This document shows, in pieces, positions 2,965-26,790 of a DNA stretch of 33,645 nt; position 1 is the stretch's first letter, and every line of letters begins with the position of its first letter. This stretch comes from Desulfobulbaceae bacterium (GTDB taxonomy: Bacteria > Desulfobacterota > Desulfobulbia > Desulfobulbales > Desulfobulbaceae), in NCBI GenBank assembly GCA_011389815.1, contig JAABTP010000030.1:1-33645 (forward strand), written 5' to 3'. The position numbers and the translations under genes are program-made. The notes below the pieces were generated by a model. That model did not search any database and was not told where the DNA came from. It saw only the letters and a program-made list of their open reading frames with translations.

Positions 2965-4686
2965 TCATCCGGTTTGAAACACCCGGAATCCCTGATTGCC
3001 AAAGCAGTAGATCACGAATTTAGATATTGTTGCGTTCGGATATTCCTGACGCAACCCCTCGGCATAACCGTTAATCTGTTCTGTATCTTCAGATCGTACT
3101 TGAAATTCCTCAATATCCGTTTTGAGCTTCCTGAATTCGGCATTGGAAAAATACTTGAACTCAACCACCCAGCGCAGGCCAGCATATTTTTCATTATACT
3201 TGCCCACAAACTCCAGATCACTCCGTCCTTGCGGATAGGAACGCTCCACATGCCAGACAAACCAACGGGAAAGAAAACGACTGCATAGCTCGTAAAAGGT
3301 GGTGCGGTAGAAGTTCTCATTCACCTGCTGAAAAATTGCTTCAGGCAGCTGGGAGACATATTCCCGCCAGTAGCCGGCAAAGAGTTGTTCCAGGTCAGGC
3401 TTGTTGACAAAGCCCTGCATGATTTCAGCATAGCGGGTGGAGACGTCGATGTTATGAATCTCGTTAAAATACTGCACAAAGATAGTGCGCATGTTCATGT
3501 TGGGCAGGCAGAGATAAAAATCATCCTTGCGGGTCAGCATGCCGAGATAGAAAAAGGAGATCGGGAAAAAGGACGGTTCAAAGAACTGGTACATATTAAA
3601 TTTCTCAACCAGAAAGGTATCGTCAAAGGCAATGCTGTTGTGCAGGGTCAGTTGATTAACAAAGTCCTCGGTCATAGCTGGGTTGGAGGCGGTGAGGCGA
3701 CGCACCCAGGAAATATCGGTTTTCAGATTGAGATCAGTGAGATGTTTGGGAATGGTCTTGTGATTCTGGAGCCAGTTGAGGAAATAGAGCACCAGGGTGG
3801 AATTGTACAGGCTTTCCCCGTCATTGGTTACCAGATGATAGCCATTGTATTGATTCTTCATCACTGTACCCACCTCGGAACGGGTGGTCGGGTCAAGCTC
3901 CTGATCCTGAAACACAGCATCCACCAGTTCATCAGTTTCAGCCTGGGTGAATCCCAGCATGTTCTCGAAGAACGGGTCTAATGTCAGAAAAGTAGCCACG
4001 TTAAAGCCGGAGGCCATGTCATCCATAGTGATGGGCAGAACGCCGGTGATAAACACATTGGCAATGCTCTGGGTTTCCCGCCCCTGTTTCAGGGTTTTAA
4101 AAAAAGTTTTGAAAAAGCCGTTATCTGCTGTGAGTTCCCGGTAGAGCTGATCCTTATTGGCCGTGACCAGCTGATTAGCGAAGTTATCGTATTCGTCAAT
4201 GATGATATACAGGGGCGGGAGTTGTTGCTCCTGCAAATATGTCAGCAGAGCATCCAGGTTGTCAGAGACCGGGGCATCAATGTTCATTTCCGGTATTTTG
4301 TTGAGCAGAGCATATGTATTGCGCATGGATTTTATACGATGATTGCAATGCACCTTAAAACTGCGCTCAATTGCCCCAATGGTTTTGCCGGGTTCTATAA
4401 CGGAAAAATTGAGATGAAGGATAAAACAGGAATTCTGCTGACCTGTGGGGTACTGGCCTATCCAGGTATGCCCGAAGAGTTCCTTGAAGCGGTCTGCGGT
4501 GTTGATATCGTAATAATGATTGAGGATTGAGCAGAGCAGGGACTTGCCAAAGCGTCGCGGTCGGAGAAAGACCGGGTTGTTCACCAGCTCCAGCTCGGCC
4601 AACCAATGGGTCTTATCAACAAAATAGCCGTTTTTCTCCAACAGTTCAGAGTAGTTGGCAATGCCATAGAGGATACGTTTTTTCAT
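2965..4686 (-). CDS. AAA-ATPase-like / PD-(D/E)XK nuclease-superfamily protein (PF09820 + PF08011 type)
   Basis: The N-terminal part matches the AAA-ATPase-like family: a GIANYSELLEKNGYFVDKT opening, a nucleotide loop LRPRRFGKSL and an acidic IIIDEYDNF segment like Walker B. The C-terminal part (GRSDLEFVGKY, then WVVEFKYF) has the D...ExK spacing of a PD-(D/E)XK nuclease core. Proteins with this pairing are common in multicopy sets in environmental and host-associated bacteria, and their role is not established. The frame extends to a GTG at 4710, but the ATG at 4686 has AGGA about 8 nt upstream and gives the family's usual MKKRILYGI start, so 573 residues are annotated. It follows the DUF445 gene closely, which suggests co-transcription. 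Confidence 0.82.
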   Translation of the reverse strand: MKKRILYGIANYSELLEKNGYFVDKTHWLAELELVNNPVFLRPRRFGKSLLCSILNHYYDINTADRFKELFGHTWIGQYPTGQQNSCFILHLNFSVIEPGKTIGAIERSFKVHCNHRIKSMRNTYALLNKIPEMNIDAPVSDNLDALLTYLQEQQLPPLYIIIDEYDNFANQLVTANKDQLYRELTADNGFFKTFFKTLKQGRETQSIANVFITGVLPITMDDMASGFNVATFLTLDPFFENMLGFTQAETDELVDAVFQDQELDPTTRSEVGTVMKNQYNGYHLVTNDGESLYNSTLVLYFLNWLQNHKTIPKHLTDLNLKTDISWVRRLTASNPAMTEDFVNQLTLHNSIAFDDTFLVEKFNMYQFFEPSFFPISFFYLGMLTRKDDFYLCLPNMNMRTIFVQYFNEIHNIDVSTRYAEIMQGFVNKPDLEQLFAGYWREYVSQLPEAIFQQVNENFYRTTFYELCSRFLSRWFVWHVERSYPQGRSDLEFVGKYNEKYAGLRWVVEFKYFSNAEFRKLKTDIEEFQVRSEDTEQINGYAEGLRQEYPNATISKFVIYCFGNQGFRVFQTG

Positions 4687-4713
4687 AGATTCAATCCTGA
4701 AACGCTCCACCAG

Positions 4714-19592: not shown

Positions 19593-19862
19593 ATGGCACA
19601 GAGTACAGCAAGAAAAGAAGAGATTATTAAGAAATTCGCAACCCACGAAGGTGATACCGGTTCTCCAGAGGTACAGATTGCTCTGATTTCCGACCGGATT
19701 ACCTATTTGACCGATCATTTCAAGACCCATGCTAAGGATCATCACTCTCGTCGTGGTCTGCTCAAGCTGGTTGGTCAGCGTCGCAGCCTGCTGAAGTACC
19801 TGAAGAAGAAAGATATTAATCGGTATCGTACACTGATTCAGGAACTGGGTATCAGGAAGTAA
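19593..19862 (+). CDS. rpsO: 30S ribosomal protein S15
   Basis: The 89-residue protein matches S15 throughout: [40 protein letters not shown] and [24 protein letters not shown] stands 6 nt ahead of the ATG. A 177-nt leader separates it from truB; S15 mRNA leaders often bind S15 for autoregulation, and this one could, but I could not recognise a known leader fold. A strong terminator follows. Confidence 0.97.
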
Positions 19863-19897: not shown

Positions 19898-19936
19898 TTT
19901 TCCTGTTATGCCTTGCTGTGTAACAGGAATTTTTTT
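19898..19936 (+). terminator. Rho-independent terminator after rpsO
   Basis: TTCCTGTTA (19900-19908) pairs perfectly with TAACAGGAA (19921-19929) and is followed by seven T residues (19930-19936). It closes the nusA-infB-rpsO operon and isolates the following cassette. Confidence 0.88.
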
Positions 19937-20007
19937 GTAATGTACGTTGAACGGGTTATTTTTGTTTTCCTAAAGATTCTCTCGTTACACGCCGATTTTA
20001 CAAGGAG

Positions 20008-20826
20008 ATGTCGCCGTTGTCCCGCATTGTTTTCTGGAATGTGAAGCGTAAGGATTTGACAGGTGCTGTGTGTGCGCTGGCAAAATCAACGGCTGCTGAT
20101 GTCATTGTTCTGAACGAGAATATGGTATCCGGCTCGGAAACCCTTTGTGCCCTGCGGAGCAAGGTTTCTCCTGAATTCTATATTCCGGCGTTCATTTCCG
20201 ACAAGCGATTTCATTGTTTCTGTAAAAATAGGAAGCTTGATTTGTCCGAGATAGATTCGGGACTTTTTCGAACGAGTACGAGAAAATATAAACTCGGTAA
20301 CCAGATATTTCTTTTGGTATTGATTCATGGGCCTGATATCCGAAATTATGATGCTGAATCGCGCCAGTCATTTGTTCAAGAGCTTGTCCGAGAACTTAAT
20401 TTTGTCCGAGAAGATAAGAAAATTGATCGGTTGATTCTGCTTGGCGATTTCAATATGAATCCCTATGATCGGCCTATGAATTTGGCTGCGGGCCTGAATG
20501 CCATGATGACAAGATCATGTACAGCAAAGGGGAGTCGGCGGCATCTCGGAAAAGACTACGAATTTTATTATAATCCGATGTGGGGCCTGTTGGGAGATAA
20601 TACCAAAGGTCCGGCAGGAACAGTGTATGATACAAGCAATCAGGGGCCGTATGGCTGGAGTATGTTTGATCAAGTTATCCTGCATCACACCGTTGTGCCA
20701 TTTTTTCAGGATGTAGAGATAATTACCGAAGCGGGAGAGCATTCCTTTATGGATAAGAACGGTCATCCAGACGCAAAGAATGCCTCGGATCATTTTCCGA
20801 TCATTGTTGATTTTATGGAGAAATAG
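20008..20826 (+). CDS. Endonuclease/exonuclease/phosphatase (EEP) family protein
   Basis: The protein carries a complete set of EEP active-site motifs: WNVKR (metal-ligand Asn), LNEN (Glu), LIHGPD (His), GDFNMNP (Asp and Asn), FDQVIL (Asp) and SDHFPI (Asp-His). The family includes DNase I-like nucleases, ExoIII and phosphatases; the substrate cannot be told from sequence. There is no signal peptide, so it should be cytoplasmic. AAGGAG abuts the ATG at 20008, which is too close, while the TTG at 20017 lies 9 nt after it and gives MSRIVFWNVK; TTG 20017 may be the real start. It ends TAG, 1 bp before the partner gene. It sits between rpsO and pnp, an unusual place. Confidence 0.82.
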   Translation: MSPLSRIVFWNVKRKDLTGAVCALAKSTAADVIVLNENMVSGSETLCALRSKVSPEFYIPAFISDKRFHCFCKNRKLDLSEIDSGLFRTSTRKYKLGNQIFLLVLIHGPDIRNYDAESRQSFVQELVRELNFVREDKKIDRLILLGDFNMNPYDRPMNLAAGLNAMMTRSCTAKGSRRHLGKDYEFYYNPMWGLLGDNTKGPAGTVYDTSNQGPYGWSMFDQVILHHTVVPFFQDVEIITEAGEHSFMDKNGHPDAKNASDHFPIIVDFMEK

Positions 20827-20827
20827 C

Positions 20828-21364
20828 ATGAGTATTTTTTGGCCGGAAGGTTTGTCAGTCAGTGATGTGCGATCACCGTATGAAATTTTGGAAAATGCCC
20901 AAGAAGAGTGGGAAACTGCCAGCGATGGTGTGCTGACTCTTGTGTTGCAAGAATCTGAAGACGATAAGAGTATAGTCATAACAGTTCATGCAAAACATCT
21001 TCCCAGCAACAGGACAGCCACATTATTGTCTGTAATACATCGCCTGAATGAACCATATCCGGTCACAATTCGGCCTAGGGATGAGAATATCCCAAATTTT
21101 CTAAAAAAATCATACCAGGTGTCTTGGACAAGTGCAGGGTCGGCGGCAGCAAAAGTAGTGGCGGAACTTGAAGCTATAAATAATCCAATGTCTATCAAGG
21201 AATCGCAGAAACTGATTACAAATAAATGGGTTTCTGATACTCCATCAGAATTTCGTGAAAAATTGACCAAAGCTTTTAATCTTTCCGAGGTCAAAGCTGC
21301 TGTATTAAATTTGACATCCTCCAAGGGTACGTTAGTGGATGATGATAACGAGGCGCAAGAATAA
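20828..21364 (+). CDS. Hypothetical protein paired with the EEP-family gene
   Basis: I do not recognise this family. The preferred ATG at 20828 has GGAG 9 nt upstream, inside the end of the EEP gene, giving 178 residues and probable translational coupling. The protein is soluble, with no signal peptide, membrane helix or obvious catalytic motif. The first 110 residues look mixed alpha/beta (VLTLVLQESEDDKSIVITVHA; YPVTIRPRDENIPNFLKKS), and the rest looks helical (FREKLTKAFNLSEVKAAVLN) with an acidic tail. Spacing suggests it works with the EEP protein, perhaps as a specificity or regulatory subunit; that is inference. Confidence 0.72.
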   Translation: MSIFWPEGLSVSDVRSPYEILENAQEEWETASDGVLTLVLQESEDDKSIVITVHAKHLPSNRTATLLSVIHRLNEPYPVTIRPRDENIPNFLKKSYQVSWTSAGSAAAKVVAELEAINNPMSIKESQKLITNKWVSDTPSEFREKLTKAFNLSEVKAAVLNLTSSKGTLVDDDNEAQE

Positions 21365-21405: not shown

Positions 21406-21434
21406 TTTAAAAATATCAAACCAAAAGATATAAT
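21406..21434 (+). promoter_or_regulatory. Promoter for pnp
   Basis: TTTAAA (21406-21411) and a perfect TATAAT (21429-21434) are separated by 17 bp. Transcription would begin near 21441 and give a leader of about 108 nt carrying two hairpins before pnp. Confidence 0.55.
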
Positions 21435-21548: not shown

Positions 21549-23636
21549 ATGTATACACAGAAAGAAGTCGAGATCGGTGGACGTACCCTGTCCTTTGAGA
21601 CCGGCAAAATGGCTAAACAGACCAGCGGTTCCGTTGTGGTGACCTGCGGCGATACAATGATTCTTGTCACCGTGGTTGCCGAGAAAAAGAACAAGGATGC
21701 TGGCTTTCTGCCATTGACCATTGAATATCAAGAGCGAATGTATGCTGCCGGACGTATTCCAGGCAATTATTTTCGCCGTGAAATAGGTCGTCCTTCAGAA
21801 AAGGAAATATTGACCTGCCGACTTATTGATCGTCCTTTGCGCCCGCTTTTTCCAGAAGGGTATATGGCTGAAACTCAGCTGATCACCACCGTATTTTCAG
21901 CAGATCAGGAGATTGACCCGGATATCCTGGCGATGAATGGTGCTTCTGCGGCATTGGTGCTTTCTGATGTGCCTTGGGCAGGGCCTGTGGCAGCAGCCAG
22001 AGTTGGTTATATCAATAATGAATATGTCCTCAACCCCACAGTCAGCCAGTTGGAAAAATCTGTCATGAATTTGGTGGTGGCTGGAACCGAGACTGCTGTG
22101 GTTATGGTGGAAGGCCGCACTGGCGAGCTGAGTGAGGATGTTGTCCTTGAGGCAATCTTTTTTGCTCATCAGGAGATCCAGCCGATCATTGCTATGCAAA
22201 AGGATTTGCAGAAAGAAGCTGGCAAGGAAAAACGTGAAATTGCTCCCCCTGAGATCAACCAGGCCCTTAAGGAAAAAGTGGAAGAAGCTGCCGCTGCTGG
22301 TATGGAAGAAGTGGTCACCATTGCTGGCAAGATTGAACGTGGTGCCCGTTATGACAGCCTCAAGGAAGAGGTGCTTGCGGCAATTGACGAGGAACTGTAC
22401 GAGAGCGAGGCAGAGGTTTTTGATCTGCTGGGCGCATATAAAAAAGAGGTTATGCGTGACCGGATCGTCAACAAGGGTCTGCGCCTTGATGGACGAAGCT
22501 TTGACCAGGTTCGTCCCATTGAATGCGAGGTCGGTGTTCTGCCCAAGGCCCACGGTTCAGCCTTGTTTAGCCGAGGCGAGACCCAGGCTATGGTCATTAG
22601 CACCTTAGGCTCTGAGCGCGATGAACTGCATGTGGAGGGCCTGAGCGGTGATACCTATCGTCGTTTTATGCTCCATTATAACTTTCCCCCTTTCTGTGTG
22701 GGAGAGGCCCGTTTTATGCGTGGCCCCAGTCGTCGTGACATTGGGCATGGTACCCTTGGCCGTCGTGGGATTGAAGCAGTTCTACCAGAGGCAGCAGATT
22801 TTCCCTATACCATGCGCGTAGCGTCTGAAATTCTGGAATCCAATGGATCCTCCTCTATGGCCACGGTTTGTGGTGCAAGCCTTGCTTTGATGGATGCTGG
22901 TGTGCCTATTAAGGCCCCTGTATCTGGTGTGGCTATGGGCCTGATCAAAGAAGGCGATAAGGTTGTTGTGCTCACTGATATTCTCGGTGATGAGGATCAT
23001 CTCGGTGACATGGATTTCAAGGTTGTGGGCACGGCAAAGGGTATTTCTTCCCTGCAAATGGATATCAAGATTGACGGTGTTGATCGGGAGATTATGTCCA
23101 GTGCTTTGGCTCAAGCCAAAGAAGGGCGTCTCCATATTCTGGGTAAAATGGAAGAAGCCATTGGCATTCCGCGCGAGGAAGTTGCAGATCATGCACCTAA
23201 ATATGTTACCCTTAAGATCAATCAGGATAAGATCCGTGATATCATCGGTCCGGGCGGTAAAGTGATCCGGGAGATGACCACGGAGTTTGATTCCAAGATT
23301 GATGTGGATGACGACGGAACCATCAAGATCTTTTCCAAGAGCACGGAGTCTGCTGATGCCCTGGTTGCTCATATTGAAGGCATGACAGCCATGCCAGAGA
23401 TTGGCAAAGTCTATAACGGTCTAGTCAAGACCATTAAGGATTTTGGTGCCTTTGTTGAAATTCTTCCTGGAACCGACGGGATGGTTCATATTTCTGAGCT
23501 GGCTGACCGTCGTGTCAACAAGGTCACTGATGTCCTTGAAGAGGGCGAGCAGGTTAAGGTCAAGGTTATTGATATTGACGGACGCGGACGCATTCGTCTG
23601 AGCCGGAAAGCAGCTCTGGAAGAAGGGGAAGAATAA
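21549..23636 (+). CDS. pnp: Polyribonucleotide nucleotidyltransferase (PNPase)
   Basis: The 695-residue protein is a standard-length 3'-5' phosphorolytic exoribonuclease. It has a first RNase PH domain with GSVVVTCGDTMILVTV, a helical middle region, a second RNase PH domain (LFSRGETQAMVISTLG; FPPFCVGEARFMRGPSRRDIGHG; MDFKVVGTAKGISSLQMDIK), a KH domain (IIGPGGKVIREMTTEF) and an S1 domain (YNGLVKTIKDFGAFVEILPG; DGMVHISEL). AAAGGAG lies 8 nt before the ATG. It degrades mRNA and usually sits right after rpsO; here an extra two-gene cassette intervenes. Confidence 0.97.
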   Translation: MYTQKEVEIGGRTLSFETGKMAKQTSGSVVVTCGDTMILVTVVAEKKNKDAGFLPLTIEYQERMYAAGRIPGNYFRREIGRPSEKEILTCRLIDRPLRPLFPEGYMAETQLITTVFSADQEIDPDILAMNGASAALVLSDVPWAGPVAAARVGYINNEYVLNPTVSQLEKSVMNLVVAGTETAVVMVEGRTGELSEDVVLEAIFFAHQEIQPIIAMQKDLQKEAGKEKREIAPPEINQALKEKVEEAAAAGMEEVVTIAGKIERGARYDSLKEEVLAAIDEELYESEAEVFDLLGAYKKEVMRDRIVNKGLRLDGRSFDQVRPIECEVGVLPKAHGSALFSRGETQAMVISTLGSERDELHVEGLSGDTYRRFMLHYNFPPFCVGEARFMRGPSRRDIGHGTLGRRGIEAVLPEAADFPYTMRVASEILESNGSSSMATVCGASLALMDAGVPIKAPVSGVAMGLIKEGDKVVVLTDILGDEDHLGDMDFKVVGTAKGISSLQMDIKIDGVDREIMSSALAQAKEGRLHILGKMEEAIGIPREEVADHAPKYVTLKINQDKIRDIIGPGGKVIREMTTEFDSKIDVDDDGTIKIFSKSTESADALVAHIEGMTAMPEIGKVYNGLVKTIKDFGAFVEILPGTDGMVHISELADRRVNKVTDVLEEGEQVKVKVIDIDGRGRIRLSRKAALEEGEE

Positions 23637-25584: not shown

Positions 25585-26790
25585 ATGATGACCACTTGCC
25601 CCATTGCCATACTGAATGCTGTATCCTCAGAAGGATTGGATATTTTTGGTGAAAAGTATCAGCTGCATGCTGATGCGAAAGATGCCATAGGGCTTGTTCT
25701 CCGTAGTTCACCGGTTGATCTGGATGAATTCCCGAATCTGGTGGCTATTGCCCGGGCCGGGGCCGGAGTGAATAATATTCCCGTGGATGAGGCTTCAGAG
25801 CGTGGAATATGTGTGTTTAACACACCTGGTGCCAATGCCAATGCTGTGGTTGAGCTGGTTTTTACGATGCTGGGGATTTCGTTACGTAATCTTCACCAGG
25901 GCATGGATTTCTGTGAGGGGCTTTCTGGTCTTGCAGGAGATGCTCTCAATAAGGAGGTGGAAGCCCGGAAAAAGATGTTTAAGGGGTCTGAGATGTCTGG
26001 AAAGACCTTGGGGGTTATCGGGCTGGGGCAAATCGGTGTCCGGGCTGCGAACATGGGGATCTACCATAATATGCGGGTGATTGGCTATGATCCTTACCCG
26101 GTTATGGATAATATTCATGGCCTGCTGCCAGAGGTGGAACTGGCCCAGGCTCGCCGCGAGTTGCTGGCCCAGGCAGATGTTGTTTTTCTGCATGTTCCTT
26201 TGAATAAAAATACCAGGGAGCTGGTGAATTAGGAATTCATTGACTTTATGAAAGAAGATGCCCTGCTGTTCAACTATGCCCGTGGACCGGTTGTGGATGA
26301 GAACGTGGTGATTAAGGCCCTTGAGGATGGTAAGATCGCTGGTCATATTTCAGATTTTCCCTCACCCAAATTAATTGATCATGACAAGGTGCTTCTCACG
26401 CCCCATCTTGGTGCTTCTACAGCTGAGTCTGAGGAAAACTGCGCTTGTATGGCGGTTAAAGAGCTGAAAGGGTATCTGGAGTACGGCAATATCACCCATA
26501 GTGTCAATTTTCCTAATGTAGAAAGTATCCCTACTGTTTGGGTCCACACCCGTTTGATTGTGATCAATAAAGATACACCTGGGATGATTGGCTTGATGAG
26601 TAATATTCTTGGCAAGCATGATATTAATATCATGAGTTATACCAATAAGAGCAACGGTACCTTGGGGTATAATATTATTGATACTGCAAGTGCTGTCTCG
26701 CCCGAGGTCTGCAAGGAGATTGAGGCGGTTGACGGGGTGATCAGGACACGGGTGATTCCGGTGAAGAGCGGCTTCAATATCACAATATAG
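25585..26790 (+). pseudogene. serA: 3-Phosphoglycerate dehydrogenase gene interrupted by an in-frame TAG
   Basis: The frame encodes a short SerA with ACT domain: active-site RAGAGVNN (R57), NAD-binding GVIGLGQIG (143-151), ARGPVVDENV, catalytic His in TPHLGAST (about 274) and a C-terminal ACT domain from about 320. SerA makes 3-phosphohydroxypyruvate, the first step of serine synthesis. After residue 215 the codon is TAG (26230-26232), yet the same frame continues without shift (EFIDFMKEDALLFNYARG) to the natural TAG end. One base change from AAG, GAG or CAG explains it. As written, translation gives a 215-residue fragment lacking His and ACT. GGAG lies 4 and 7 nt before two tandem ATGs. Real mutation, read-through or sequencing error cannot be told apart here. 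Confidence 0.85.

What the first reader, a model, noticed from the sequence alone, without database searches (positions are those of the whole stretch)
20008..21364. Two-gene EEP nuclease cassette between rpsO and pnp
rpsO and pnp are neighbours in most bacteria. Here rpsO ends with a strong terminator and pnp has its own promoter, with a two-gene unit between them: a catalytically complete EEP-family enzyme and an unrecognised 178-residue protein, 1 bp apart. The arrangement looks like a recently placed, self-contained module and could be an RNA-processing, phosphatase or defence pair.
Basis: partly seen in the sequence, partly recalled or inferred. Interest (0 to 1): 0.58.

Follow-up and report, generated by a model that had tools for sequence, protein, structure and literature searches.

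The report
Mobile two-gene nuclease module
Two neighbouring genes in a cable bacterium, a nuclease-like enzyme and a small protein of no described family, form a unit that has spread between very different bacteria and phages, and it looks like a toxin–antitoxin or anti-phage pair, although no function has been tested.

Summary
An EEP-family gene and a 178-residue gene, 1 bp apart, sit in the rpsO–pnp spacer of a Candidatus Electrothrix-type cable bacterium. Four of eight genus genomes carry the pair there; the other four have a 331–338 bp spacer. It is no local oddity. A scan of 84,980 species genomes gave 71 EEP loci, 68 with a partner-like gene directly downstream. Searching by partner alone, 21 of 25 new places have EEP beside them. 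The genes co-diverge (Mantel r 0.81), occur in many phyla and on five IMG/VR viral contigs, all paired. On the EEP tree this one genus holds four separate lineages. Catalytic residues are kept in 55 intact copies, bar one alignment gap. The partner matches no family in four libraries. EEP is damaged or lost beside an intact partner 14 times, the reverse once; this bias is weak evidence. Best reading: a mobile nuclease–inhibitor module, toxin–antitoxin-like and probably anti-phage. Pairing and mobility are shown; inhibition, substrate and defence are inferred.

The parts
19593..19862 (+). rpsO, left flank of the insertion site
   Evidence: ORF; the protein located the site in 26 of 27 genomes searched
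19900..19929 (+). terminator-like hairpin plus T run after rpsO, shared with empty sites
   Evidence: aligned in empty and filled sites
20002..20007 (+). AAGGAG, likely ribosome-binding site of the EEP gene (9 nt before TTG 20017)
   Evidence: sequence; orthologous TTG start in L014-L016
20008..20826 (+). EEP-family (Exo_endo_phos) enzyme gene, 272 aa from ATG 20008, more likely 269 aa from TTG 20017
   Evidence: conserved residues N11 E37 H107 D147 N149 D221 D261 H262 present
20828..21364 (+). partner protein of 178 aa, family with no name in the libraries searched
   Evidence: AlphaFold2 model pLDDT 84.6
21406..21434 (+). promoter-like site before pnp, in the ancestral part of the spacer
   Evidence: flank shared with empty site of G001
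21549..23636 (+). pnp (polynucleotide phosphorylase), right flank
   Evidence: ORF; N-terminal part located in 22 of 26 loci

Best explanation
The pair is one copy of a mobile two-gene module: a metal-dependent EEP-fold nuclease (effector) and a small acidic partner made from the gene directly behind it. Shown here: the two genes occur and diverge together, sit at many unrelated places (some inside housekeeping gene clusters), are carried by phage contigs, and keep the catalytic residues of the enzyme. Inferred: the partner binds the nuclease and holds it inactive; infection by another phage, or another stress that removes or diverts the partner, frees the nuclease to cut nucleic acid. That would stop the phage or the cell (toxin–antitoxin or abortive-infection type, superinfection exclusion when on a prophage). 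A restraining role for the partner is preferred because the nuclease gene is found broken or missing beside an intact partner more often than the reverse.
For: Partner-like gene directly downstream of EEP in 68 of 71 loci found by the EEP search (assigned by position, and the profile used later was built from the same genes). From the partner side, EEP lies next to the partner in 21 of 25 places not in the profile. Co-divergence r 0.81, 0 of 5000 permutations as high. Patchy: 28 of 1236 genomes of five groups matched, 9 of them already known carriers; in a Desulfobacterota sample of 297 only the window genome matched. Four separate EEP lineages in one genus. Five of five viral-contig EEP loci have the partner; one lies directly upstream of terminase and portal genes, one beside a tape-measure gene, one between a C1-type repressor-like gene and an integrase. 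The filled and empty rpsO-pnp spacers differ by about 1.35 kb, the size of the two genes. EEP damaged or absent with partner intact at 14 places, reverse 1. Partner acidic: median pI 5.4 against 6.4, lower than its EEP in 47 of 52 pairs.
Against: No toxicity, inhibition or protection test exists. The 14:1 decay bias is p 0.017 against a length-proportional null, but only 8:1, p 0.13, for loci found through EEP; six of the 14 were found through the partner, which favours that outcome, and draft-bin errors are possible. The tethered model gave no coordinates to inspect, so contact between the proteins is not shown. No PADLOC family matches more than 3 of 107 nearest neighbours. The partner has no recognised DNA-binding or antitoxin domain. 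Searches of phage and plasmid records with the window partner found nothing.
Confidence: 0.5

Rival explanations
1. The partner is a specificity or sensor subunit and the two proteins together are the active nuclease, acting directly on foreign nucleic acid like a restriction enzyme.
For: Near-obligate pairing and co-divergence; carriage by phage contigs and, damaged, by a plasmid; one intact partner without EEP sits beside a weak HSDR_N/PD-(D/E)XK-like gene and a weak HEPN-like gene.
Against: Intact partners exist without EEP (L124, L130, L156), which a pure co-subunit should not; no recurrent methylase among the neighbour families shown (25 of 137).
Confidence: 0.22
2. The pair is a DNA or RNA repair/processing enzyme (for example TDP2-like removal of adducts) with a cofactor, spread because it is useful.
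For: The EEP half of the model is closest to TDP2 in Foldseek (E 3.3e-10, ranks 1-24) and about equally close to ExoIII homologues, APE1, DNase I and LINE endonucleases by VIA-align (Z about 18-19); neighbour families shown are mostly housekeeping.
Against: Patchy, several lineages in one genus, often broken, phage-borne, and in the rpsO-pnp spacer of only half of one genus.
Confidence: 0.15
3. The enzyme is a phosphatase or phosphodiesterase for a small molecule (nucleotide signal, lipid or sugar phosphate) and the partner a regulator.
For: Neutral sphingomyelinase, nocturnin and a mannosyl-6-phosphatase score as high as the nucleases in VIA-align.
Against: No one pathway stands out among the neighbour families shown (25 of 137); Foldseek's first 24 rows are all TDP2, which acts on DNA (its role is recalled).
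Confidence: 0.1

Closest known systems
EEP superfamily (Pfam PF03372 Exo_endo_phos; TDP2, DNase I, ExoIII, APE1, LINE endonucleases)
   Same: Fold and conserved motifs (N, E, H, GDxN, DQV, SDH)
   Different: A subfamily of its own with FFYNPMW, PPGTYYY and FW-x-x-FDQV motifs, encoded with a second gene; 11-20% identity to the solved structures listed
Type II toxin-antitoxin modules, toxin gene first (HigBA-like order, recalled)
   Same: Two small adjacent genes, mobile, patchy, several copies in some genomes, on chromosomes and phage contigs; partner retained more often than effector
   Different: The words exonuclease and phosphatase do not occur in the main text of the 2009 type II survey PMC2701414 (word find); partner has no known antitoxin domain; toxicity untested
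XisH/XisI of cyanobacteria (small partner of a nuclease-like protein, recalled)
   Same: XisI chains are at Foldseek ranks 1, 2, 4, 6, 12 and 14 for the partner model, and XisI also goes with a nuclease-like protein (recalled)
   Different: Best E only 0.11, TM 0.2-0.3, no sequence match; a lead, not a relationship
Prophage-borne superinfection exclusion, e.g. BstA (PMC8585504, start of abstract seen in the listing)
   Same: Here too an extra unit on prophage-like contigs beside structural or repressor genes
   Different: Different proteins; no protection shown here

Membership tests
EEP superfamily PF03372 | Pfam model reached above its cut-off | tested here: met
   24.7 bits against 24.5 for the window protein
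EEP superfamily PF03372 | catalytic and metal residues present | tested here: met
   H107, D147, N149, D221, D261, H262 in 55 of 55 intact sequences, N11 and E37 in 54 of 55 with one gap; 17 of the 71 loci were left out beforehand; residue roles recalled
EEP superfamily PF03372 | EEP fold | tested here: met
   model of relative L040: 129 chains at Foldseek E up to 0.001, VIA Z up to 19.2; the window's own EEP was not folded
EEP superfamily PF03372 | hydrolysis of phosphodiesters or phosphoesters | not testable with these tools
   needs enzyme assay
Type II toxin-antitoxin system | two adjacent co-oriented genes that move together | tested here: met
   68 of 71 loci; 21 of 25 from the partner side; Mantel r 0.81
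Type II toxin-antitoxin system | effector toxic alone and neutralised by partner binding | not testable with these tools
   needs expression in a laboratory strain; decay bias only hints at it
Type II toxin-antitoxin system | sequence match to a described toxin or antitoxin family | tested here: not met
   no PADLOC match for the pair; no family shared by two of 68 partners in Pfam, NCBIfam, PADLOC or PHROGs at E up to 0.1
Anti-phage defence system | carried on phages or other mobile elements | tested here: met
   five viral contigs, one plasmid copy with a damaged EEP
Anti-phage defence system | clusters with known defence genes | tested here: inconclusive
   107 nearest-neighbour ORFs: 71 PADLOC families matched, 25 shown, none in more than 3 ORFs; Pfam families shown (25 of 137) mostly housekeeping
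Anti-phage defence system | lowers phage plating | not testable with these tools
   needs plaque assays
XisI family | fold or sequence similarity to XisI | tested here: inconclusive
   Foldseek E 0.11, VIA Z about 4; no PDB sequence match

The most novel reading that the evidence does not exclude
This is an undescribed, cross-phylum, phage-borne immunity module: an EEP nuclease kept in check by a new family of small acidic proteins and released on infection. It would be an EEP-based toxin–antitoxin or abortive-infection class of its own, acquired several times by cable bacteria.
Probability: 0.42. Interest if true: 0.75.

Novelty: new variant of a known kind. Interest (0 to 1): 0.6.

Why it matters
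A conserved partner family with no entry in four libraries, tied almost one-to-one to an EEP enzyme in many phyla and on phage contigs, is a ready-made candidate for a new defence or toxin–antitoxin class. Both proteins are small, and relatives occur in named strains (for example Heliobacterium mobile DSM 6151 and Methylovulum psychrotolerans Sph1), so it can be tested at once. The libraries searched name at most the EEP half, as a member of the broad Exo_endo_phos family.

Tried and rejected
A local oddity of Electrothrix: rejected, since the pair is widespread. A fixed rpsO–pnp part of the order: rejected. Phage and plasmid records with the window partner: none; plasmids with a relative's partner: none. 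Viral contigs with the window EEP alone: none. The single viral 'hit' of the window partner (L013) covers 27 residues and I judged it chance. Partner fold against PDB: no Foldseek match at E up to 0.001; VIA rows (CapZ, YjbR, CyaY, Z up to 6.4) are within the level that tool gives for models without a clear match. Partner profile against PDB sequences: nothing convincing. EEP against PDB sequences: best E 0.58. Acinetobacter plasmid and phage EEP hits (23% identity, 65% covered) were not pursued. Partner profile in viral contigs: none, although EEP searches found five. A first tethered alignment (A3) misplaced partner rows on the EEP half and was dropped; the second (A4) was tried out beforehand in a script. 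From the pTM of 0.77 I estimate that the partner is placed against the EEP with moderate confidence, but there is no control and no coordinates, so I do not use it as evidence. Rows dropped before counts: for residue, tree and Mantel counts 17 of 71 loci (L025, L048, L054, L058, L062, L063, L072, L073, L078, L083-L087, L089-L091; for the tree L088 was kept). For the gap count L025, L062, L071 and L072. Same places: L157 and L054, L018 and L037, L020 and L088, L124 and L145, L127 and L153. L062, L150 and the plasmid copy L194 were left out of the decay count as unclear. Literature: searches (listings and starts of abstracts) and word finds in PMC13092281 and PMC2701414 showed no description of the pair; subscription papers and bioRxiv were not held.

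Full report
What is there. The window is contig C159 of a 4.0 Mb genome. Its genus is Candidatus Electrothrix: a same-genus locus, L018 from G001, is identical to the Ca. Electrothrix gigas AU1_5 record L037. Between rpsO (19593–19862) and pnp (21549–23636) lie an EEP-family gene (20008–20826) and a 178-codon gene (20828–21364), 1 bp apart. The rpsO terminator and the promoter-like site before pnp exist as described but belong to the ancestral spacer. The EEP start is more likely TTG 20017 (see the observation check).

Insertion. The partner was found in 4 of 57 genomes of the order, all in the genus. EEP relatives were found in 5 of 57, at 8 places, again only in the genus. rpsO was located in 26 of 27 genomes, and the spacer to pnp could be measured in 22; in the four that carry the pair, pnp lay beyond the stretch held. 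The spacer is 331–338 bp in the four genus genomes without the pair (one of them only 69% complete), and 15–777 bp in 17 others; G016 has 1,126 bp. The window spacer is 1,686 bp, so the difference is about 1.35 kb, the size of the two genes. Exact junctions could not be placed, because the left flank does not align beyond the terminator. The spacer is a recurrent landing site. G007 carries UPF0175 and DUF3368 genes between the pair and pnp, G004 keeps the UPF0175 gene, and the empty site of G001 ends in what reads like the tail of a UPF0175 gene (my reading). Gain followed by loss within the genus is therefore as possible as one recent gain.

The same pair elsewhere. Paralogous EEP genes in the genus each have a small gene directly behind them: G000 and G001 between glyQ-like and metG-like genes, G002 on another contig, and G001 inside a nuo-like cluster (gene names there are my reading of the translations). 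A scan of 84,980 species genomes with an alignment of seven EEPs returned 71 loci. It used one peptide pattern, so this is a lower bound; two of the 71 are the known G001 loci. A partner-like gene follows directly in 68 of 71 (L048 is cut by the contig end). These were assigned by position, and the most divergent (L088, 9% identical to the window's) rests on position above all. The exceptions are L063 (EEP with a stop, partner decayed), L086 (a divergent EEP, followed by a gene with a sigma-70 region 2) and L091 (a different EEP). In 64 of the 68 the median gap is 12 nt; 10 overlap and 5 exceed 30 nt. Carriers include Cyanobacteriota, Planctomycetota, Chloroflexota, Acidobacteriota, Bacillota, Bacteroidota, Pseudomonadota and one Methanothrix bin. 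Sixty of the 71 record titles begin with MAG, and the one labelled Klebsiella (L031) is in my view mislabelled.

Independent check from the partner side. A profile of 68 partners (A2) was searched in 1,236 genomes of five groups, each centred on a known carrier: 7 of 291, 8 of 246, 3 of 247, 9 of 201 and 1 of 251 genomes matched. Nine of these 28 were carriers already known (G347, G375, G386, G361, G355, G378, G380, G1270, G360). Of 35 places, 25 were not in the profile, and 21 of those 25 have an EEP gene beside them (at one, L164, both genes are truncated). The four without are L145 (same place as L124) and L156 with intact partners, L150 cut by a contig end, and L143, a fragment. L124 lies beside a weak HSDR_N/PD-(D/E)XK match and a weak HEPN match, both under the curated cut-offs.

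Transfer. A tree of 61 EEPs puts the four rpsO-site genes of the genus inside a 100/100 group with two cyanobacterial, one chloroflexal and one planctomycetal sequence. The glyQ-site and C3 genes fall in two other supported places; the nuo-site gene is a fourth lineage on a very long branch (2.69) whose place is unsure. Several separate gains by the genus are the simplest reading, but old duplication with loss is not excluded. Bootstrap values had not fully settled, and bins can hold foreign contigs. EEP and partner distances correlate at r 0.81 over 55 pairs; no permutation of 5,000 exceeded 0.30.

Phages. Two EEP searches of IMG/VR gave five loci, all with the partner directly behind. L193 lies upstream of a terminase large subunit and portal protein. 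L195 lies beside a tape-measure protein, and L197 between a C1-type HTH gene and, further away, a phage integrase. L192, 58% identical to the window EEP over 266 residues, has an excisionase/regulator-type match upstream, but its putative head genes matched no PHROG model and the two also tried matched no Pfam model. L196 has a RadC-like gene near it; its phage nature rests on IMG/VR. A damaged copy sits on a plasmid of Rhizobium sp. C104 typed as conjugative, with a weak partner match behind it (E 0.0046).

The proteins. In 55 intact EEPs (54 of the 71 loci and the window) the conserved set is invariant apart from one gap. The residue roles are recalled from APE1 and DNase I. The partner gave no family match shared by more than one of 68 members in Pfam, PADLOC, PHROGs or NCBIfam at E up to 0.1. 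Its model (pLDDT 84.6) is a helix, an antiparallel sheet and two C-terminal helices, with one further helix. Foldseek found nothing at E up to 0.001; six XisI chains among its first 14 rows are a lead only. A model of a neighbouring pair from L040, read through the stop between the genes (pLDDT 91.9, pTM 0.77), confirms the EEP fold: TDP2 first in Foldseek, and Z 17.7–19.2 for the 50 entries shown by VIA-align. It does not settle the substrate. Whether the halves touch could not be inspected.

Which gene decays. Of 113 loci examined, duplicates included, the EEP is frame-broken, truncated or largely deleted beside an intact partner at 11 (L025, L054, L058, L072, L073, L084, L085, L087, L146, L148, L149) and absent beside an intact partner at 3 (L124, L130, L156). 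The reverse is seen once (L086). Both are damaged at L063, L131, L143 and L164. Against decay in proportion to length 14 to 1 is p 0.017; for the loci found through EEP alone it is 8 to 1, p 0.13. Draft errors and the way six of the loci were found weaken this. It is a hint that the EEP is the costly member and the partner the protective one.

Context. I took the nearest ORF on either side of the pair (107 ORFs of 90–700 aa by a simple ORF caller, which can pick false ones). The Pfam families shown (25 of 137) are mostly housekeeping, such as 6-phosphogluconate and glucose-6-phosphate dehydrogenases, topoisomerase, SRP54 and S-adenosylmethionine synthetase; two ORFs match Uma2, a putative restriction endonuclease. 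Of 71 PADLOC families matched, 25 are shown and none is in more than 3 ORFs. This gives no support for defence islands but does not exclude them.

Conclusion. Shown: a real, mobile, phage-carried two-gene module with an intact EEP enzyme and an unnamed partner family, inserted in this genus. Inferred, at about even odds: a nuclease–inhibitor pair of toxin–antitoxin or abortive-infection type. No description of the pair was found in the searches (listings only) or the word finds.

Noticed in passing
window 25585-26232 and 26248-26790: Two ORFs correspond to one 399-aa ORF (phosphoglycerate-dehydrogenase-like by my reading) in relatives L014-L016, so this gene looks interrupted in the window genome or its assembly.
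   Followed up: no
rpsO-pnp spacer of L016 (6387-7135), L015, L167 and L174: The spacer is a repeated insertion site: UPF0175/DUF3368 genes in G007, UPF0175 in G004, a likely remnant in G001, and a long membrane-protein ORF in G016 (TerC-like by recall).
   Followed up: partly
L020 9041-10355 (G001 contig 92): A very divergent EEP-partner pair lies between genes that read as NADH dehydrogenase subunits, i.e. inside a nuo-like operon of Ca. Electrothrix gigas.
   Followed up: partly
L124 1257-3652: Partner without EEP between a PD-(D/E)XK-like (HSDR_N, weak) and a HEPN-like (weak) gene in Cyanothece sp. SIO2G6; may be a different nuclease pairing.
   Followed up: partly
L086 5941-7582: Paenibacillus phytohabitans EEP of the same family is followed by a 256-aa protein with a sigma-70 region 2 in place of the partner.
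   Followed up: no
L193 3698-5527: A DUF4365-like gene (weak match) lies upstream of the pair on this phage contig.
   Followed up: no
window 2965-4710: ORF of 581 aa that reads like an AAA-ATPase/PD-(D/E)XK family protein (recalled, not searched).
   Followed up: no
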